Assembly (NCBI GenBank): GCA_018333525.1
Contig: JAGXTF010000088.1
Span: 1 to 64,000 of the forward strand
Source of the DNA: Bacteroidota bacterium
Lineage (GTDB): Bacteria; Bacteroidota; Bacteroidia; NS11-12g; UBA955
Direction of reading: 5' to 3'
Length of the DNA stretch: 64,000 nucleotides
Shown piece after piece: positions 50,786 to 60,216 of the stretch. The stretch's first letter is position 1, and every line of letters begins with the position of its first letter. The position numbers and the translations under genes were made by a program. A model generated the notes under the pieces. The model ran no database searches. It was given only the letters and a program-made list of their open reading frames with translations, and was not told the origin of the DNA.

Positions 50786-52012
50786 ATGCGCAAAACCTTA
50801 CTCCTGTTTTTATCCGTTTTTTTTCTGCAATTTTCTCATGCACAAAGTCCAGAAATTACAAGCTGGATTTTAAATACCGACAGTTCAAAAGGATATAACA
50901 ATATTCTTTCCAATGTGCAAATGGTTCAATATTCCGCCAATAATGTTTACGTAAGCTCCACCTGTATTCCCGGATATGATATTGGCCCATGGGCGGGGAA
51001 TCCCAATACACCTGCCAACCAGAATTTTGTATTTAAAATAACCCGTAATCCACAAAAAAATACCGGTACTTTAATTGCCACAAATCTTGGTCACATCGGT
51101 ATATGGACTAATGGTGTGTCCATTTTTAATCCCAAAGATGCAATGAGTTATAACAACCAAGGTGTTTGGAATCAAAATGCCATAGTGGTGGAAGGTCCTT
51201 CCTTTGATGATTGTCTGGGGCATCCGGCGCCAAATGGGGAATATCACCACCATTTAAATCCCACCTGTTTGTATAATGATTCCAATGCAACGGTACATTC
51301 TCCAATTATTGGTTTCGCATTCGATGGATTTCCAATTTATGGTGCATATGGGTATTCTGATACGCAGGGAGGTGGCGGTATTCGGAGAATGCAGAGCAGT
51401 TATCACAAAAGAAATATCACCAAAAGAACCACCTTGCCGGGTGGTGCCGCTGCATCTTCCGCAGGGCCGGATGTTTCAGGCACTTATCCGATAGGATATT
51501 ATATAGAAGATTTCGAATACATAAAAGGTTCAGGAGATCTGGATGAACACAATGGCAGATTCTGCAAGACACCGGAATATCCCCAGGGTATGTATTGCTA
51601 TTTTGTTACACTGGATAGCAACCTGATTGCAGAATATCCATATGTTCTTGGTACAACTTATTATGGAACTGTGCAGTCCGGAAATACCGGCCCGGGCAGC
51701 GGGCACAATACCATAAGTGAATCGGTTACTGTGTACAATGGTACCAATCAAACCCGGATGCCGGAATCGAATGCCATGCGATTATTTCCGAATCCGGCTG
51801 GTGAAAAAGTTGTGTTGTGGTTGGAAAATGGGATGCCAAGTAACCTGAAACTGGAATTGCGAAATTCCTCTGGGACACTTGTATTTTCTCAAGATTTCAT
51901 TCAGCCTATGGTGAGCAATACTTTGGATCTTAAAGAACTTGCACCGGGCATGTATCACTTAAGCGTTTTTTCAGGATCTATGCGCTGGAACAGGACTTTG
52001 CAGATACAATAA
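50786..52012 (+). CDS. YHYH-domain protein with T9SS sorting domain
   Basis: 408 residues with a signal peptide ending 'SHAQ'. The YHYH domain covers about 60-300, with 'GPSFDDCLGHPAPNGEYHHHLNP', 'IIGFAFDGFPIYGAYGY' and 'DLDEHNGRFCKTPEYPQGMYCYFVT' in order, each near a conserved His cluster that may bind metal. The last 80 residues, from 'MRLFPNPAGEKVVLW' to 'NRTLQIQ', form a type A T9SS sorting domain. Secreted or surface-attached; activity of the family is not established. Confidence 0.88.
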   Translation: MRKTLLLFLSVFFLQFSHAQSPEITSWILNTDSSKGYNNILSNVQMVQYSANNVYVSSTCIPGYDIGPWAGNPNTPANQNFVFKITRNPQKNTGTLIATNLGHIGIWTNGVSIFNPKDAMSYNNQGVWNQNAIVVEGPSFDDCLGHPAPNGEYHHHLNPTCLYNDSNATVHSPIIGFAFDGFPIYGAYGYSDTQGGGGIRRMQSSYHKRNITKRTTLPGGAAASSAGPDVSGTYPIGYYIEDFEYIKGSGDLDEHNGRFCKTPEYPQGMYCYFVTLDSNLIAEYPYVLGTTYYGTVQSGNTGPGSGHNTISESVTVYNGTNQTRMPESNAMRLFPNPAGEKVVLWLENGMPSNLKLELRNSSGTLVFSQDFIQPMVSNTLDLKELAPGMYHLSVFSGSMRWNRTLQIQ

Positions 52013-52047: not shown

Positions 52048-52065
52048 CCGAAAAAAACATTTCGG
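52048..52065. promoter_or_regulatory. Dyad upstream of the Rrf2 promoter (possible operator)
   Basis: CCGAAA, six bases, TTTCGG. It ends 6 bases before the -33 element of the rrf2 promoter. Rrf2 regulators often bind dyads at their own promoters; direct evidence is absent. Confidence 0.4.
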
Positions 52066-52070
52066 ATAAA

Positions 52071-52101
52071 TTTGTCGGAAAAGAAAATATGATTATTTTT
52101 G
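52071..52101 (+). promoter_or_regulatory. Bacteroidota promoter of the rrf2-oxidase operon
   Basis: TTTG (52071-52074), 19-base spacer, TATTTTTG (52094-52101). This is the best match to the phylum consensus in the window. Transcription should start near 52105-52108, about ten bases before the ATG. Confidence 0.65.
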
Positions 52102-52117
52102 CCGCCGCAATTACCCT

Positions 52118-52552
52118 ATGTTTTCTAAATCCTGTGAATACGGAATTAAGGCAATCATCTATATTGCTAACCAGTCTTTGCAAAAAAGAAGGGTAAAATT
52201 GCAGGACATTATTGGGGAAGTTGGATCCCCTGAAGCTTTTACAGCAAAAATCTTACAGGAACTTGCCAGAAATAAAATTATTATTTCGCATACCGGACCA
52301 TATGGCGGGTTTGAAATGGATGTGAAGAATATGAAAAAGGTACGATTAAGTGAAATTGTATATGCAATAGACGGAGATGCCATTTATAATGGCTGCGGGC
52401 TGGGTTTAACCGCCTGCTCAGCATCACAGCCTTGTCCCATACACCATAAATTTGTTAAAGTAAGAAATGAGCTGAAAATAATGCTCGAAACAACTACCAT
52501 ATATGACCTGGCAGTAGGGCACAAAAATGCCGCTACCTTTTTGAGACGATAA
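52118..52552 (+). CDS. Rrf2-family regulator with three cluster cysteines
   Basis: 144 residues. The N-terminal winged helix-turn-helix includes 'SKSCEYGIKAIIYIANQS' and 'SPEAFTAKILQELARNKII', with the wing 'GPYGGFEM'. Cys93, Cys100 and Cys106 ('GCGLGLTACSASQPC') have the spacing of NsrR/IscR-type iron-sulfur cluster ligands, so it probably senses NO, redox state or iron. It starts the operon with the oxidase (49 bases before ccoN) and is the likely regulator of it. Confidence 0.88.
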   Translation: MFSKSCEYGIKAIIYIANQSLQKRRVKLQDIIGEVGSPEAFTAKILQELARNKIIISHTGPYGGFEMDVKNMKKVRLSEIVYAIDGDAIYNGCGLGLTACSASQPCPIHHKFVKVRNELKIMLETTTIYDLAVGHKNAATFLRR

Positions 52553-52601
52553 AAAAATTTGACCACATTTAAGACAATAAAGTCCGAAATATAAAAATCA
52601 A

Positions 52602-54359
52602 ATGGAAAGTAGAAATTTATGGGGAGAATCAGGAATCTGGATTACCGTCCTGTTAATTGTGATTCCCGTTTTGGCGGCAACCATCATTATGGTTGTAAAA
52701 GCCGTTGTAACGCTAAACAAATATCTGCGAGAACAAGAGTTGGAGAAATTCAGGAAATATGTCAAGGAATTAAAGCCTGACGAACTTGAAAAATTGGAAC
52801 GAAGGAAAAAAGAACTCGAATTTGAGCTCAGCCACAATGAACTCAGTGGTGATGCCACACCAAAAGACAGCAGAGGACTAATAGACTATGTTGACGAGGT
52901 TGCCGAACTCCGTTTTGTAGAAACCAAAAAGAAAAGTCAGCCACGGCCATCTATTGATCCTGTACTAACCAGACTTATTCTCTGGTATATCGGATGTGCC
53001 ACATTCTGGCTGTTGTTTGGTACCACCATTGGAGAATATCTTGGAATTAAATTTTCAGCGCCTGATATAGATCATTACAGTTGGTTGAGTTTTGGCCGCC
53101 TGAGACCTGTTCATACCAATGCCGTTTTTTGGGGCTGGGCATCGCTGGCCATGGTGGGGCTTGCTTATTATGTGGTTCCAAGGGTTAGCAATGTGCAGAT
53201 ATACAGCATTCGATTGGGTTATCGAACCTTGATTTTAATAAACCTGTCTGTGATTTTGGGAAGTATTTTTTTAATGGCAGGAATCAATAATGGAGGTGGA
53301 GAATACCGGGAATACATATGGCCGATAATGGTATTGTTCGGAACAGGAATTATTCTGTCTTTGTATAATTTTTATAAAACCATTGCAAAAAGAAATACAA
53401 AAGAAATTTATGTGTCCAATTGGTATGTGATAGCGGCCATGATGTTTTTGTTGGTTATTGCAGTAGTAGCATATTGGCCGGGGTGGCAGAATGGCCTTGG
53501 AGAAACCATTGTACAGGGATATTATATGCATCAGGGAGTTGGTATGTGGTTTATGTTATTCAATCTCGGATTGATGTATTATTTTCTTCCGCAGCAATTA
53601 AATAAACCTATTTATTCTTACAGTCTGGGAATACTTGCTTTCTGGACACAAATTCTTTTTTATACGCTTATAGGAACGCACCATTTTATATTTAGCGCCA
53701 TACCCTGGTGGATGCAGACCATAGCAATTGTAGGTAGCGCAGGAATGATAATACCGGTAGTTGCAGGAACCACAAATTATCTGATGACGTTTAAAGGATC
53801 CTGGAGAAAATTATCCGGTAGTTATACCCTTCCTTTTTATCTCATTGGTATTATCTTCTATTTTACAGGTTCTCTGCAAGGAACTGCAGAGGCATTCCGT
53901 TTTACGAATCTCGTCTGGCATTTTACTGATTTCACGGTAGCGCATTCTCACCTAACCATGTATGGCATTATCACATTTATGTTATGGGCATTTGTATACA
54001 CCATTGTCCCCAGACTTACTGGTAAAGAACCTCCGCAGATTTTAGTCGGTGCGCATTTCTGGCTGGCATTAATCGGCTTGTTGTTTTATACGATTCCATT
54101 AATGGTTGGTTCCACATTACGGGGCATGATGTGGATGGATGGAAAGCCTTTTATAGACAGTGTGGAGTTGATGGCGCCTTTCTGGTTGTGGCGTGCAATT
54201 GGAGGTACATTAATGTGGCTTTCCCATATTCTTTTTGCATACAATGTCTATGTAATGATAAAGAAAAAAGATACCAAAAAAATACCCAAATCATCGAAAG
54301 AAATATTAAAGATGAAAATGGAATTGGAAATGGAAAATCAAGTGGAAATAATTAAATAA
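52602..54359 (+). CDS. cbb3-type cytochrome oxidase core subunit, CcoN-like
   Basis: 585 residues. An N-terminal transmembrane helix (12-35) and a charged coiled coil (about 40-80) precede the 12-helix oxidase core, an extension most CcoN lack. Haem and copper ligands are visible: His171 ('LRPVHTN'), His310 ('YYMHQGVG'), His360-361 ('GTHH'), His448 and His450 ('TVAHSHL'). Tyr354 is where CcoN has its cross-linked tyrosine, and no NorB-like glutamate follows His310. So oxygen reduction is expected; NO reduction is not excluded. Spaced 6 bases from the next gene. Confidence 0.85.
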   Translation: MESRNLWGESGIWITVLLIVIPVLAATIIMVVKAVVTLNKYLREQELEKFRKYVKELKPDELEKLERRKKELEFELSHNELSGDATPKDSRGLIDYVDEVAELRFVETKKKSQPRPSIDPVLTRLILWYIGCATFWLLFGTTIGEYLGIKFSAPDIDHYSWLSFGRLRPVHTNAVFWGWASLAMVGLAYYVVPRVSNVQIYSIRLGYRTLILINLSVILGSIFLMAGINNGGGEYREYIWPIMVLFGTGIILSLYNFYKTIAKRNTKEIYVSNWYVIAAMMFLLVIAVVAYWPGWQNGLGETIVQGYYMHQGVGMWFMLFNLGLMYYFLPQQLNKPIYSYSLGILAFWTQILFYTLIGTHHFIFSAIPWWMQTIAIVGSAGMIIPVVAGTTNYLMTFKGSWRKLSGSYTLPFYLIGIIFYFTGSLQGTAEAFRFTNLVWHFTDFTVAHSHLTMYGIITFMLWAFVYTIVPRLTGKEPPQILVGAHFWLALIGLLFYTIPLMVGSTLRGMMWMDGKPFIDSVELMAPFWLWRAIGGTLMWLSHILFAYNVYVMIKKKDTKKIPKSSKEILKMKMELEMENQVEIIK

Positions 54360-54365
54360 AATCGC

Positions 54366-55355
54366 ATGCATTTTTTTGATGATCATAAAAAACTTTTCAG
54401 GATGGCACTTGGCCTGTTCCTGGGGCTCACCATAATAATTGCAGTTATTCCTGCATTAAAAAATCAGGCAAATAATGCACCGCTGCCAAATTCAGAACCG
54501 CTTAGCAAAGCAGCTGAAGAAGGCAAAAAAATATTTATCGCAAATGGTTGTGTGGCCTGCCACACCCAACAGGTGAGAAATGTGGATATGGATAAAACCT
54601 GGGGAAACAGACCCGGAATTGCAGCAGATTATGCAGCCAATACCAGAATAGATTTTTGGAGGAATACAGCCACTCTCATGGGCACTGAAAGAACCGGACC
54701 GGACCTGACAAATATAGGTATACGGCAACCTGGAAAAGAGTGGAATCTCTTGCATTTATACCAACCACGTGCGGTGGTGAACAAATCCATCATGCCTGCT
54801 TATCCCTGGTTGTTTGATGTAAAAAAAGAATTGGTAACGGGCGATGTGGAATTGATAGTACCGGATGAATTTAGAAAAGGTGTAACCGGTAAAATTGTGG
54901 CCACCACCGATGCTTTAAACCTCCTTGCATATTTGCAGAGTTTGAAACAAACGCCGTTGCCACAAGGTATGCAAGAGAGTGAATTTTTATATAAAAAGAA
55001 AAGTGAAGTTCCCTCAGCTTCCGGTGCAGATAAACTGCCCGACGGAAAAATGGTTTATGCAAATAATTGTCAAAGCTGTCACCAGGAAAATGGGGAAGGT
55101 CTAAAGGGTGCATTTCCACCATTAAAAGGAAGCAAAATTGTGCACGGAAATGATCTGGAATTGTATGTTACGATTATCATGAAAGGTTATGATGCAAGAG
55201 AGGAATATGCTTCCATGGGAGCAATTGGAACCATCAACCATTTTACACCGGAAGATGTGGCTGCACTGATCAATTTTGAAAGAAGCAGTTGGGGAAACAA
55301 TGGAAAAAAAGTGAGTGCCGCTGAAGTAAAAAAAATTATGGAAACCCTCAAATAA
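54366..55355 (+). CDS. CcoO fused to a second cytochrome c domain
   Basis: 329 residues. An N-terminal transmembrane anchor (about 11-30) is followed by a CcoO-like domain: haem c site CVACH (62-66), 'RTGPDLTNIGIR', 'LLHLYQPRAVVNKSIMPAYPWL' with Met143 as likely axial ligand. After a linker near 205-225 comes a second haem c domain: CQSCH (235-239), 'GAFPPLKGS', with Met284 as likely ligand. Usually CcoO and CcoP are separate; here one polypeptide supplies CcoO and a CcoP-like haem. It would deliver electrons to the CcoN-like core. Confidence 0.85.
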   Translation: MHFFDDHKKLFRMALGLFLGLTIIIAVIPALKNQANNAPLPNSEPLSKAAEEGKKIFIANGCVACHTQQVRNVDMDKTWGNRPGIAADYAANTRIDFWRNTATLMGTERTGPDLTNIGIRQPGKEWNLLHLYQPRAVVNKSIMPAYPWLFDVKKELVTGDVELIVPDEFRKGVTGKIVATTDALNLLAYLQSLKQTPLPQGMQESEFLYKKKSEVPSASGADKLPDGKMVYANNCQSCHQENGEGLKGAFPPLKGSKIVHGNDLELYVTIIMKGYDAREEYASMGAIGTINHFTPEDVAALINFERSSWGNNGKKVSAAEVKKIMETLK

Positions 55356-55371
55356 ATAAAATAATTTACTG

Positions 55372-55635
55372 ATGAAACGCGGAATATTAATTGTTTTTTT
55401 TGCAGTGCTTTCACAGCATTTTGCACTCTCATGCGATGCCTGTGAGAAACAGCAGCCAGCCATCACCCGTGGGATTACACATGGTAACGGACCTAATAAC
55501 AACTGGGACTGGGTGATTGTGATTGTTATGGTGGTTATTACTTTGGTAACCCTTTGTTTTTCAATATGGTATTTAATAAGGCCGGGTGAAAATCAATCCC
55601 GACATATCAAAAGAACCATTCTGAACTTGCAATAA
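55372..55635 (+). CDS. Small membrane protein of the oxidase operon
   Basis: 87 residues: a signal peptide, a short periplasmic part with a cysteine pair (SCDACEKQQP), and one transmembrane helix near 48-70. It lies 16 bases after the CcoO fusion. Size and position are like CcoQ-type assembly or stability subunits, but no homology is visible; CxxC could bind copper or haem-delivery partners. Function inferred from position. Confidence 0.62.
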   Translation: MKRGILIVFFAVLSQHFALSCDACEKQQPAITRGITHGNGPNNNWDWVIVIVMVVITLVTLCFSIWYLIRPGENQSRHIKRTILNLQ

Positions 55636-55644
55636 TTAATTATT

Positions 55645-56052
55645 ATGAATAAAGAAAAAAGCACAATCTATCTTTTTGTAGATGACGATGCACAGCCTAT
55701 TGCCGAATTGGTCACACCTGTACAATTTGAACTGGATACCAGAAAATTAACCGATGGGGAACATACACTTAAGATTGTTGGAAAATCTCCTACAGGAAGG
55801 GAGGGAATAAAAAAAATAAAATTCATGGTTCGGAATGGTCCTGCAATTGATTTGTCAGGAATTAAAGAAAATGATGTCGTAGATGGTGTCATCCCATTAA
55901 TGGTAAATGCCTACGATAAAGGAAATCAGAACAATTTCAATATTGTTGGCAGTGAAACTCCTCAGAATGTACCCAACTGGCTGTGGATTTTGCTGGTTGC
56001 TTTTCTGGGTTGGGCAGTTTTTTATACCATTACTAATTTTAATTTATCATGA
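55645..56052 (+). CDS. Tail-anchored protein of the oxidase operon
   Basis: 135 residues. Residues 5-90 form an immunoglobulin-like beta domain with 'YLFVDDDAQPIAELVTPVQF', 'TDGEHTLKIVGKSPTGREG' and 'GPAIDLSGIKENDVVDG'; a C-terminal transmembrane helix ('WLWILLVAFLGWAVFYTI') anchors it. There is no N-terminal signal peptide. Its final helix resembles the one found in CcoP N-termini, so it might substitute for the missing CcoP anchor. The gene overlaps the globin gene by ATGA. Confidence 0.6.
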   Translation: MNKEKSTIYLFVDDDAQPIAELVTPVQFELDTRKLTDGEHTLKIVGKSPTGREGIKKIKFMVRNGPAIDLSGIKENDVVDGVIPLMVNAYDKGNQNNFNIVGSETPQNVPNWLWILLVAFLGWAVFYTITNFNLS

Positions 56053-56456
56053 TGTATTACAGAAATACAAAAAGAGAAATAATTTGTTTGGATGATATTA
56101 AAGAACTGGTGGATTCCTTCTATTCTAAAGTTCGTGAAGATGAGGTTTTGAGTCATATTTTTAATGATCGCATTCAGAATCGCTGGCCGGAACATCTCGA
56201 AAAAATGTACCTTTTTTGGCAAACGGTATTGCTTGAAGAACACACTTATCTCGGGAGTCCATTTTTACCGCATGCGCAACTTCCTGTTGGTATAGAGCAT
56301 TTTAACCGTTGGATGGAATTGTTTAATAAAACGGTGGATGAGAGATTCGCAGGAATTACAGCTACAAAAGCCAAATGGCAGGCAGAAAGAATGGCTGAAA
56401 TGTTTCATTCCAAAATTGAATTCTACAAAAACCATCATCTAAAACCTTTGAAATAA
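56049..56456 (+). CDS. Group III truncated haemoglobin
   Basis: 135 residues, the usual size. 'DDIKELVDSFYSKVREDEVL', 'FWQTVLLEEHTYLGSPFLPH' and 'GIEHFNRWMELFNKTVDERF' match TrHb3; His84 is the likely proximal ligand and Trp57 lies in the distal pocket region. Group III globins are linked to NO or oxygen chemistry. Placement as the last gene of an Rrf2-oxidase operon suggests NO protection of the oxidase or oxygen delivery. The 56457-56637 gap contains a small hairpin (56476-56495) without a T run. Confidence 0.9.
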   Translation: MMYYRNTKREIICLDDIKELVDSFYSKVREDEVLSHIFNDRIQNRWPEHLEKMYLFWQTVLLEEHTYLGSPFLPHAQLPVGIEHFNRWMELFNKTVDERFAGITATKAKWQAERMAEMFHSKIEFYKNHHLKPLK

Positions 56457-56637: not shown

Positions 56638-59600
56638 ATGTCAAGGTTTTATTATTTATTTTTTATTGTTTTTTTTATTTTTAGTTCATCCAAAACTTTT
56701 GGTCAATGCACAATTGAAGGACCAAGGAATGGTTGTGTAAATGATATAATTACCTATACCATTAAATCTTCCGCTGCGCCTGCTTCATATAGTTGGAATT
56801 TTGGCACTTATGGAAATAGCAGCAATGCAGCTCCGAGTATTAAGGTTACGGCTACCGGATCCGTTACCATTACCTGCGAAATTACCATGTCAAACGGCAG
56901 CAAATGTAAAGACACCCATTTGTTAATGATTCAACCCAATCCGGTAGGAAAACTCGCCATAGATCCATCTTCCAATTTATGCGCGAATGGAAATCGTGTT
57001 TGTTTGAAAGATGCAAGTACAAAAGGTGCGGCTGATATTGAAAAAATAATTGTGTTGTGGTTTGACGGAAGTACATCCAAAACGCAAAAACCTTTGGGAT
57101 TGATGTGTCGTTCCTTTTCGGGTGCAGGCACATATTCCTACAACCTGGAAGTGGCAGATGCTTTCGGATGCAAACACAATTCCACAGCAACTGTTACCAT
57201 CAATCCATCACCTAAAATTCAGGGAAAATATTCATCCATCCCATATTGTGATTCAGTGCAGTTTTGTTTTGATGGTCTTACGAATGGCGGTACAACCGGA
57301 ATTACATATGAATGGTATAACAATCCCGGAAAATCTGTTATATCCACTAGTAACGTCATTTGTAAAACATATAAAGCAGGTGAATACGGTTCGTTTAAAT
57401 GCAAAGTAACCAACAGTTTTGGATGCCCGGATTCCTTTTATTTTTATGGCAGCGCACCGGTGCGAAAAATTGTGGCTAAAATAAGCGGAAGAAAATTTTG
57501 CAAAAAAGATATGACGCCATCCAATGCATTTTTTGCATCCAATGAATTTTTAAATTGGTACATCAATGGAAAGCTAATGGGTACGTATGATACGCTTCCA
57601 TTAAAAATGATTTCCCATGGCTGGAATTATGTGAAAGGCGAGCAGCTTCCACCATGCAAAGGAGTGGTATACGATTCTTTTTATGTAACAGATGTAACAG
57701 CATCAGGAATTGCATTTAATAACGTACGGGCAAAAGTTATTGATACCGTTTTTTTTCTGGATGTTGGAAGTTATTCCCCGGGTACAAAAATTTACAGATT
57801 ATGGAGTTTTAATGACGACGAGGCTGATTCCTGCACCACATCTATAAAACAGAATTTAAATCCATGGCAAAATTGCAACTACAGTTATGATAGTTTGGCC
57901 AGACATTATTACCATAAAAAGAAATGTTTTGAAGCAAATTTATATGTTTATGATAGTGTTTCAGGTTGCTATGATGATACCACGATTGAAGTGTATCGAT
58001 ATGATTATTGCAACGAGCTGATTTCGCCGGAGATAGTCTGTTTGGGGGATCCGGTTATATTTAGTATGACAAAAGCGGCATATTATAAGGCGGGGACTTT
58101 AAATTTTCTTTATACCGATACAGGTAATCCGCGAAATGTATATACGTTGAAACCCTCACCTGTTTTATTTTATACGTACAGTTCCGTTGGATATAAAAGT
58201 CCCATTTTTAAGCGCTTTTATTATGATGAAATTGTATGGAAAGACAGTGCCGGAAAAATAGTAATTGACAGCATGAGAAAGGACGGTTGGGTTTCAGATA
58301 CTTTTTTTAATGGCGTGTTGGTGAAATACAGGCCAAATGCCTCCTTCTCTCTTGTAAAACCGGGTCTCTGCCCACCATGGAAAACAACGCTTAAATTCAT
58401 GGCCAGTACCTGGGAGGATCCGGATACCATGGTGGTGAATTGGGGAGATACCATAGAATATTTCACCAATTATTCCGGGAAATTAGGCTATCTGGACAGT
58501 TTAAAGCACCAATATAAAAAGCCCGGTATTTATGATATCAGCGTGAAACTGAAGCCTAAACAAGGGTGCACCAATGAGTATTTTGGATTTTTGGGAATTG
58601 GCACCCATATGAATTTTACACCTGAATTAAATTGCAACTGGCGGAGGGTGAAGTTTAATGAAAGCGTAAAAATGTATGGGGATACCAATGAAATTCAGAC
58701 TGACTCCAATGAATTATTCTGGGATTTTGGAAATGGTACTTATGGAGTTGGTTCGGATCCGATTGCCAAATATTCCAAAACTGGCACATATAAAGTCACC
58801 TTAAAATATCTGAAAAAAGGTGGTTGCAGCGATTCATTTTCCCGGGATATTACGCTTAGCGGTCCGGTTGCTGCAATGAAAAATGCGCCAATTATTTATT
58901 GCAGCGAATTGCATACGTTTTATGATTCTTCTTACATGAGTGGAGTTACAAATGGCGATTTTATTACCAAAAGAATTTGGAATTTTGGCGATGGCACTGC
59001 CGATCTTTTTGGGACCAGTATTTCTCATATTTATCCAACAGGTGGAACCTATGTAATTCGTTTGGTTGTGCAAACCAACAAAGGTTGCAGCGATACCATT
59101 TATCAATCTTTAAAAGTATTGGGACCTGAAGTTTACGCGAAAATAGGCACCGATAGTTCGGGATGTCCTCCACTGTATATTCGGTTTGATAATTATTCTA
59201 AACAATGCGGCAATTATATCTGGCAGTTTGGAGATCCTATGAATAACATTTATTCCACGCATGCAGATACATCCGTGAGTTTTACTTACACCAAACCCGG
59301 TGTTTATTTTGCCAAATTAATTGGTGGCGATAGTTTTTTTAACCCAAATACCGGCAACCGGTATTTTTGTTCTGCTACCTATCCCAAAACAGGGGATAGC
59401 GCGCTGATGATAGTGGTATACCCAAATGCAATTACCGATTTTGAAATGCCGGATTCTGTATGTCCGAAAATGACATTTGAAATTAAGAATACCAGCCCTG
59501 TTCCTGTAAAAGAGTATACCTGGAAATTACCAAATTACACTCAAAATAATATTCCTTTTGGCAGTATTTATTACAGATTTGAAGATACCGGAACCTATGC

Positions 59601-60216
59601 TATCGGCGCATTTCCACAATTGGATACTTCCTATAAATTCTGTCCGGATTCTGCATGGAAAAAATTAAAGGTGGTACAGCATTTTACTTCATTTGTGCAT
59701 GATTGTAAAAAGAGTCATGCACCGGCCATTCATTTTAAAAATACTTCAGTTCCACAATCGGATATTTACCGGTGGACGGAAATGAATCCAGTAGATTCTT
59801 CACAAAAAGACCTGGCATATTCCAGGGATATCAATCTCCAGTATAATTTAGATACGGGGAAACATATTGTTTGCCTGAATACCACCGATTCTGCCTATTG
59901 TTATTATCGTTCCTGCACCACGCTGATTGTAAAGAATTATTTGGCCATTGCCAATGTATTTACTCCGGGAACGGATGGTTTTAACGATGTTTATAAAGTT
60001 CCATTTGACGGGTATCAGGATTTTGAAATGAAAATTTTCAATCGGTATGGGGAGCGGATATTTTATACCACCAATCCAAAAATATATTGGAATGGGAAGG
60101 TGGAAAACAAAGGTGCAGAGCTGCCTTCAGGCACGTATTTTTACCAAATAACCTTCAAAGAAGAATGTCATAAAGAAAAAACCATGATCAATGGTTCTGT
60201 GAATTTGTTGCGGTAA
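56638..60216 (+). CDS. 1192-residue PKD protein with CHU_C-type T9SS domain
   Basis: An N-terminal signal peptide ends at 'TFGQ'. The body has several PKD or PKD-like domains ('PASYSWNFGTYG', 'ELFWDFGNGTYG', 'KRIWNFGDGTADLF', 'GNYIWQFGDP') separated by longer cysteine-containing stretches of unknown fold. The C-terminus from 'AIANVFTPGTDGFNDVY' to 'NGSVNLLR' is a gliding-motility-associated CHU_C domain, the type B T9SS signal. Similar in plan to the protein at the start of the window but not tandem-repetitive. Probably surface-exposed. No clear promoter or terminator seen. Confidence 0.87.
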   Translation: MSRFYYLFFIVFFIFSSSKTFGQCTIEGPRNGCVNDIITYTIKSSAAPASYSWNFGTYGNSSNAAPSIKVTATGSVTITCEITMSNGSKCKDTHLLMIQPNPVGKLAIDPSSNLCANGNRVCLKDASTKGAADIEKIIVLWFDGSTSKTQKPLGLMCRSFSGAGTYSYNLEVADAFGCKHNSTATVTINPSPKIQGKYSSIPYCDSVQFCFDGLTNGGTTGITYEWYNNPGKSVISTSNVICKTYKAGEYGSFKCKVTNSFGCPDSFYFYGSAPVRKIVAKISGRKFCKKDMTPSNAFFASNEFLNWYINGKLMGTYDTLPLKMISHGWNYVKGEQLPPCKGVVYDSFYVTDVTASGIAFNNVRAKVIDTVFFLDVGSYSPGTKIYRLWSFNDDEADSCTTSIKQNLNPWQNCNYSYDSLARHYYHKKKCFEANLYVYDSVSGCYDDTTIEVYRYDYCNELISPEIVCLGDPVIFSMTKAAYYKAGTLNFLYTDTGNPRNVYTLKPSPVLFYTYSSVGYKSPIFKRFYYDEIVWKDSAGKIVIDSMRKDGWVSDTFFNGVLVKYRPNASFSLVKPGLCPPWKTTLKFMASTWEDPDTMVVNWGDTIEYFTNYSGKLGYLDSLKHQYKKPGIYDISVKLKPKQGCTNEYFGFLGIGTHMNFTPELNCNWRRVKFNESVKMYGDTNEIQTDSNELFWDFGNGTYGVGSDPIAKYSKTGTYKVTLKYLKKGGCSDSFSRDITLSGPVAAMKNAPIIYCSELHTFYDSSYMSGVTNGDFITKRIWNFGDGTADLFGTSISHIYPTGGTYVIRLVVQTNKGCSDTIYQSLKVLGPEVYAKIGTDSSGCPPLYIRFDNYSKQCGNYIWQFGDPMNNIYSTHADTSVSFTYTKPGVYFAKLIGGDSFFNPNTGNRYFCSATYPKTGDSALMIVVYPNAITDFEMPDSVCPKMTFEIKNTSPVPVKEYTWKLPNYTQNNIPFGSIYYRFEDTGTYAIGAFPQLDTSYKFCPDSAWKKLKVVQHFTSFVHDCKKSHAPAIHFKNTSVPQSDIYRWTEMNPVDSSQKDLAYSRDINLQYNLDTGKHIVCLNTTDSAYCYYRSCTTLIVKNYLAIANVFTPGTDGFNDVYKVPFDGYQDFEMKIFNRYGERIFYTTNPKIYWNGKVENKGAELPSGTYFYQITFKEECHKEKTMINGSVNLLR

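What the first reader, a model, noticed from the sequence alone, without database searches (positions are those of the whole stretch)
52048..56456. Rrf2-controlled compact cbb3-like oxidase with CcoO-cytochrome c fusion and group III globin
Six genes run in one direction behind a near-perfect promoter. The core is CcoN-like with oxygen-reductase residues; the second subunit joins CcoO to a second haem c domain; classical CcoP is absent and two small membrane proteins take its place; the last gene is a TrHb3. The regulator has three cysteines like NsrR. Together this suggests an NO- or redox-responsive respiratory module.
Basis: partly seen in the sequence, partly recalled or inferred. Interest (0 to 1): 0.62.

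Follow-up and report, generated by a model that had tools for sequence, protein, structure and literature searches.

The report
Nitric-oxide-regulon divergent cbb3-type oxidase operon
A six-gene operon, found in hundreds of Bacteroidota genomes, encodes a divergent relative of the oxygen-respiring cbb3 enzyme; a DNA switch it shares with nitric-oxide-handling genes suggests that it removes or withstands nitric oxide, and it may be the missing nitric oxide reductase of some denitrifiers.

Summary
The operon is Rrf2, CcoN-like, CcoO fused to cytochrome c, two small membrane proteins, and a group III truncated globin, behind a good Bacteroidota promoter. The CcoN forms its own clade (SH-aLRT 99), apart from canonical CcoN and NORs, with at least 419 relatives. 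All metal ligands and the cross-link tyrosine are kept in 97/97 sequences. Glu323, Ser240, His243 and Trp203 (P. stutzeri numbering) are replaced in 97/97. A 26-bp palindrome precedes the Rrf2 gene in 61/66 loci (shuffles 7/1320), just upstream of the -7 box. In the host genome its 12-bp core occurs five times, and only two sites lie in promoters: this operon and the gap between ScdA/RIC and a norCB-like pair. Elsewhere it precedes qNOR and norC. Neighbours include RIC, hemerythrin and, in two loci, the nos cluster. NosZ co-occurs (12/16 vs 116/379). Six NirK+NosZ genomes, three of them Kaistella, have no NOR-type haem-copper enzyme besides this one. Most likely it is an NO-induced, NsrR-type-controlled respiratory enzyme that consumes NO, perhaps a C-family NO reductase that keeps the tyrosine. 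An NO-tolerant O2 oxidase is the main rival. No function was tested.

The parts
52060..52081 (.). palindromic operator TTTCGGATAAATTTGTCGGAAA, core GATAAATTTGTC
   Evidence: Core matches the clade consensus AATAAAGGACAAATTTGTCCTTTATT found in 61/66 Rrf2 upstream regions; the window's own flanks differ and score -7.2 on the PWM. One of two promoter-located copies of the core in the genome.
52094..52101 (+). Bacteroidota -7 promoter element TATTTTTG (TAnnTTTG)
   Evidence: in 56/62 homologous loci the -7 box follows 9-14 nt after the operator, null 5%
52118..52552 (+). Rrf2-family regulator, NsrR-like, C93/C100/C106, H109, C6, E7
   Evidence: PF02082 2.5e-20; invariant residues in 66 homologues; below the cut-offs of both IscR and NsrR models
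52573..52584 (.). possible second operator, weak (GACAATAAAGTC), at the conserved second position between Rrf2 and CcoN
   Evidence: read from the sequence; many homologues have a strong second operator about 510 bp after the first; weak in the window
52602..54359 (+). CcoN-like catalytic subunit of a distinct C-family clade, with an extra N-terminal TM helix
   Evidence: COX1 2.2e-82; tree SH-aLRT 99; residues
54366..55355 (+). CcoO fused to a second mono-haem cytochrome c domain
   Evidence: FixO 4.9e-25 and Cytochrom_C 1.6e-16; both CxxCH motifs and M143/M284 invariant in 77 homologues
55372..55635 (+). small membrane protein 1: signal peptide, CxxC (C21, C24), one TM
   Evidence: C21, C24, H37, H78, K80 invariant or nearly so in 66 homologues; no family
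55645..56052 (+). small membrane protein 2: Ig/FN3-like domain plus FixP_N-like TM, haem-less CcoP stub
   Evidence: weak FixP_N 0.076 and Big_7 0.015; low-confidence model with strands then helix 111-131, pLDDT 64.6; weak FN3 hits only
56049..56456 (+). group III truncated haemoglobin, start overlaps the preceding stop
   Evidence: 2ig3 5.5e-13; in 38 of 81 loci

Best explanation
This is an NO-induced respiratory module. An NsrR-type Rrf2 repressor sits on a palindrome over the -33 region of its own operon and is released when NO attacks its Fe-S cluster. The operon then makes a compact C-family haem-copper enzyme. Electrons pass from periplasmic cytochrome c to the fused haem c, to the CcoO haem c, to haem b, and to haem b3-CuB. 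There NO is consumed, most likely by reduction to N2O, with O2 reduction probably kept as well. TrHb3 and, in relatives, RIC and hemerythrin deal with NO in the cytoplasm. Shown: gene content, clade, residues, shared operator, co-occurrence. Inferred: NO sensing, electron path, substrate.
For: Operator in 61/66 Rrf2 upstreams against 7/1320 shuffles, none in 16 canonical ccoNO loci. In G000 the only two promoter-located cores are this operon and the RIC/norCB-like gap; in G497 this operon and norC. Operator also before qNOR and norC in L126, L128 and L099. RIC near 30, hemerythrin near 23, TrHb3 in 38 of 81 loci. In L129 nosZ-L-D-F-Y runs straight into this operon; in L130 nos is divergently adjacent. 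NosZ 12/16 vs 116/379, p 0.0005; NirK 4/16 vs 26/379, p 0.03. G287, G386, G504, G516, G517 and G518 have NirK and NosZ but no other NOR-like haem-copper gene. K-channel Ser240 and His243 lost in 97/97. P. stutzeri cbb3 reduces NO (Forte 2001, cited in PMC12816887; also PMC8780969).
Against: The cross-link tyrosine is kept in 97/97, and its absence is held to mark NORs (PMC3084760). The Glu residues near the metal in cNOR/qNOR are missing. The host genome has a qNOR and lacks NirK and NosZ, so there it is not needed for denitrification. NOR replacement in the random sample is weak (4/15 vs 0/15, p 0.05), samples are not phylogenetically independent, and 11 NirK+ NOR- genomes lack the clade. The regulator is not confidently NsrR by sequence.
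Confidence: 0.55

Rival explanations
1. NO-tolerant oxygen reductase: the regulon swaps the NO-sensitive canonical cbb3 for this version so that O2 respiration continues while NO is present; NO removal is left to NOR, RIC and globin.
For: Tyrosine and all ligands kept; NOR-lacking denitrifiers also exist without this clade; the host has a qNOR too. From my own knowledge, P. aeruginosa CcoN4 is a precedent; PMC10968556 describes the NO-tolerant oxidase of that species.
Against: Loss of the K-channel Ser and His in every sequence fits poorly with an efficient O2 proton pump; adjacency to nos; NirK+NosZ genomes with no NOR.
Confidence: 0.33
2. Ordinary high-affinity cbb3 oxidase under a general Fe-S or redox Rrf2 (IscR-like), with no special tie to NO.
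For: The regulator scores higher against IscR (42.8 bits) than NsrR (25.3) models.
Against: Separate clade with changed pocket and no CcoP; operator shared with NOR and RIC promoters; the genome already has a canonical ccoNO next to a CcoI-like ATPase.
Confidence: 0.09
3. Not a respiratory catalyst but an NO or O2 sensor or scavenger feeding the globin or RIC.
For: Small unknown subunits with CxxC and Ig-like domains.
Against: All haem and copper ligands and two haem c sites are strictly kept.
Confidence: 0.03

Closest known systems
cbb3-type (C-family) cytochrome c oxidase, e.g. P. stutzeri 3mk7
   Same: Six His ligands, helix-VII tyrosine, CcoO homologue; best PDB matches 9g6b and 3mk7, E 1.8e-62 and 3.1e-62
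   Different: About 31-32% identity to canonical CcoNO; no CcoP; E323Q, S240G, H243A, W203G; own regulator and NO-type operator
cNOR / qNOR nitric oxide reductases
   Same: Same superfamily; qNOR and norC share the operator in relatives; no complete cytoplasmic K-channel analogue
   Different: Tyrosine kept, no Glu near the non-haem metal; separate branch
NsrR regulons (PMC1274295)
   Same: Rrf2 with three Cys; regulon of nor, dnrN/RIC and globin genes; palindromic operator
   Different: Cx6Cx5C spacing plus invariant Cys6; a different operator sequence; not over any model cut-off
SAR11 nirK-cbb3 region (PMC12816887)
   Same: The same suggestion that a cbb3-type enzyme may serve as NOR in a NirK+ NOR- organism
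   Different: There a canonical ccoNOQP-GHIS with Crp/Fnr; here a distinct clade with an NsrR-type operator
PRK14486 CcoO/cytochrome c fusion
   Same: Same domain order, 111 bits
   Different: Far below the model's cut-off of 447

Membership tests
C-family haem-copper enzyme | H60, H207, H257, H258, H345, H347 and helix-VII Tyr251 | tested here: met
   97/97 sequences
Authentic cbb3 oxidase | conserved Glu323 (I take this to be the 'mandatory Glu' of PMC5492636) | tested here: not met
   Gln in 97/97; canonical 8/8 Glu
Authentic cbb3 oxidase | CcoNOP with di-haem CcoP | tested here: not met
   no CcoP in the operon; only a haem-less FixP_N-like stub
Authentic cbb3 oxidase | alternative K-channel Ser and Tyr (PMC3084760) | tested here: not met
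   Ser240 to Gly 97/97, Tyr237 kept, His243 to Ala 97/97
cNOR/qNOR | no cross-link tyrosine (PMC3084760) | tested here: not met
   Tyr251 kept 97/97
cNOR/qNOR | groups with NORs in a tree | tested here: not met
   separate branch, SH-aLRT 99 vs 100 for qNOR and NorB; deep order unresolved
cNOR/qNOR | reduces NO to N2O | not testable with these tools
   needs enzyme assays
NsrR | three cluster Cys plus an acidic N-terminal residue | tested here: inconclusive
   three Cys and E7 conserved but different spacing and an extra C6
NsrR | regulon of NO genes | tested here: met
   operator before qNOR, norC, RIC and this operon
NsrR | releases DNA on NO | not testable with these tools
   needs a DNA-binding assay with NO
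Group III truncated haemoglobin | homology to a TrHb3 structure | tested here: met
   2ig3 5.5e-13

The most novel reading that the evidence does not exclude
The clade is an undescribed family of C-family nitric oxide reductase that keeps the oxygen-reductase tyrosine, and it fills the NO step in NirK+NosZ Bacteroidota that look nor-less.
Probability: 0.38. Interest if true: 0.82.

Novelty: new variant of a known kind. Interest (0 to 1): 0.62.

Why it matters
In a genome survey 9% of Bacteroidota with denitrification genes carried nir and nosZ but no known nor (PMC12569097). Nor screens built on known families would class this protein as an oxygen reductase. If it reduces NO, N2O budgets and denitrifier counts for a dominant nosZ phylum change, and the rule that the tyrosine separates oxidases from NORs fails. 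If it is an NO-tolerant oxidase, it shows how Bacteroidota keep breathing during denitrification. The Kaistella strains, with only two haem-copper enzymes each, make the question directly testable.

Tried and rejected
- Sigma-70 promoter scan: no site in the operon's promoter.
- Muntyan 2015 is not held.
- Plasmids: no relative at E 1e-90.
- Glu323-to-Gln as a unique mark of the clade: rejected, since a second C-family lineage (L121-L123) also has Gln.
- The qNOR query as a complete NOR test: rejected, because it misses NorB-like 446-471 aa proteins. I replaced it by a full COX1 inventory of 13 genomes.
- CcoN fold model: low confidence (pLDDT 64.8), not used for geometry.
- Small protein 2 fold search: only weak FN3-like hits.
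- Row CcoNO_L151 in the tree is probably a wrong ORF picked by my script and is ignored.
- A held-literature search for the same gene set found nothing that described it; subscription papers are not covered.

Full report
**Observation.** Six ORFs run on the + strand at 52118-56456. They are an Rrf2 regulator, a CcoN-like protein (COX1 2.2e-82), CcoO fused to a second cytochrome c domain (FixO 4.9e-25 at residues 9-156; Cytochrom_C at 226-304), an 87-aa and a 135-aa membrane protein, and a globin. The globin matches the C. jejuni group III truncated haemoglobin 2ig3 at 5.5e-13. The window is contig C88 of a 3.7-Mb Bacteroidota MAG. The same genome holds aa3, a canonical CcoNO fusion, a qNOR and a NorB-like gene. 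NosZ and NirK are not found in it.

**Spread and conservation.** A pattern scan of genome contigs gave 419 relatives and 80 loci were kept. In an even sample of 395 genomes of the class, 19 matched at the set cut-off; three of these are a 33%-identical sister lineage, leaving 16. Clustering the neighbours of 81 loci gives CcoN 81, CcoO-c 80, small protein 2 73, small protein 1 68, Rrf2 66, TrHb3 38, ScdA/RIC 30, hemerythrin 23 and ferredoxin 17. The block is therefore an old, selected unit.

**Clade and residues.** In a maximum-likelihood tree the clade is one side of a branch (SH-aLRT 99), apart from canonical CcoN (100), qNOR (100) and NorB-like proteins (100). The deep order is unresolved and some long branches meet. 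In 97 clade sequences every haem and copper His and Tyr251 is kept. Trp203 to Gly, Ser240 to Gly, His243 to Ala, Leu247 to Gln, Val346 to Ser and Glu323 to Gln occur in all 97 (P. stutzeri numbering). A Ser and a Tyr make up the alternative K-channel of C-type oxidases together with the cross-link tyrosine (PMC3084760); that this Ser is Ser240, and that His243 belongs to the same path, is my own knowledge. A second C-family lineage, L121-L123, also has Gln at 323.

**Operator.** A 26-bp palindrome, consensus AATAAAGGACAAATTTGTCCTTTATT, lies upstream of Rrf2 in 61 of 66 loci; shuffles give 7 of 1320. Sixteen canonical ccoNO loci have none. In 56 of 62 sites a Bacteroidota -7 box follows 9-14 nt later, against a null of 5%, so the palindrome sits where a repressor would block the promoter. 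The window's copy keeps the core but not the flanks and scores low on the matrix; it is supported by the exact core, its position, and the -7 box.

**Regulon.** The exact core GAYAAATTTRTC occurs five times in the host genome; the pattern read backwards, as a control, occurs zero times. Three copies are inside ORFs. The two in promoters are this operon and the gap between divergent RIC and norCB-like genes (RIC domains). In a second genome searched in the same way, G497, two of its five copies are promoter-located: again this operon and norC. The matrix also hits the promoters of qNOR (L126, L128), norC (L099), DUF2249 genes (L068, L072) and hemerythrin (L066, L085). Genes of this kind are the usual members of NsrR regulons (PMC1274295). 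I conclude that the operon is in an NO regulon. That Rrf2 itself senses NO is inferred: it scores below both the IscR and NsrR models, has Cys spacing x6/x5, and carries an extra invariant Cys6.

**Link to denitrification.** In L129 the nos cluster (nosZ, L, D, F, Y) is followed on the same strand by Rrf2-N-O-s1-s2-TrHb-Hr-RIC. In L130 the nos genes are divergently adjacent. In the 395-genome sample NosZ is in 12 of 16 clade genomes and 116 of 379 others (p 0.0005), and NirK in 4 of 16 versus 26 of 379 (p 0.03). These genomes are not independent: seven of the 16 are one genus. Of 59 clade genomes, 16 have NirK and ten of those lack a qNOR/cNOR hit, all ten with NosZ. A full COX1 inventory then leaves six genomes (G287, G386, G504, G516, G517, G518) in which aa3 and/or canonical CcoN and this enzyme are the only haem-copper genes over the cut-off. 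Three of these are Kaistella palustris, K. gelatinilytica and K. jeonii (loci L061-L063), with just canonical CcoNO and this enzyme. The random-sample test of NOR replacement is borderline (4/15 vs 0/15, p 0.05), and NOR-less NirK genomes without the clade exist.

**Mechanism.** Best reading: NO frees the Rrf2 repressor, and the complex takes electrons from cytochrome c through two haem c sites to the binuclear centre and consumes NO. P. stutzeri cbb3 already has NO reductase activity (PMC8780969, PMC12816887). The main rival is an NO-tolerant O2 oxidase, favoured by the retained tyrosine, whose absence is held to mark NORs (PMC3084760). I give NO-regulon membership about 0.85, NO consumption as the main role 0.55, and tolerant oxidase 0.33.

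**Novelty.** No held paper describes this gene set. The CcoO-cytochrome c fusion is known at the level of an annotation model (PRK14486). It is filed as a new variant of C-family enzymes, not as a member of authentic cbb3 nor of cNOR/qNOR, since defining features of each were tested and not met.

Noticed in passing
L136:8988-10316 (own genome C6); also NorB-like proteins in L168, L169, L179: NorB-like protein next to NorC and RIC lacks the first non-haem-metal His (YGSMVGSWN in place of HLWVEG) and has AHxM where cNOR has AHxH; it shares the operator. Its function is unclear.
   Followed up: partly
L121-L123 (G185, G218, G146): Another C-family CcoN lineage with Gln at position 323, next to a large multi-haem CcoO-like protein and a protein with an N-terminal lipoprotein-like signal.
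   Followed up: partly
52118-52552 and 66 homologues: Cys6 next to Glu7 is invariant in the Rrf2 regulators, a possible extra Fe-S ligand not seen in known NsrR.
   Followed up: partly
L072:5887-7152, with the DUF2249 protein at L072:5014-5874: A 422-aa, sub-threshold COX1-like membrane protein (NnrS-like in my reading) sits behind a DUF2249 protein with the same operator upstream of that gene cluster.
   Followed up: partly
55372-55635: Small protein 1 has an invariant CxxC and His in its exported part, with no known family; copper or redox role possible.
   Followed up: no
L124 and L106 (G248): One genome carries two copies of the clade, one in a 722-aa open frame.
   Followed up: no
50786-52012 and 56638-60216: Flanking genes are ordinary T9SS-secreted YHYH and PKD/CHU_C proteins.
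   Followed up: yes
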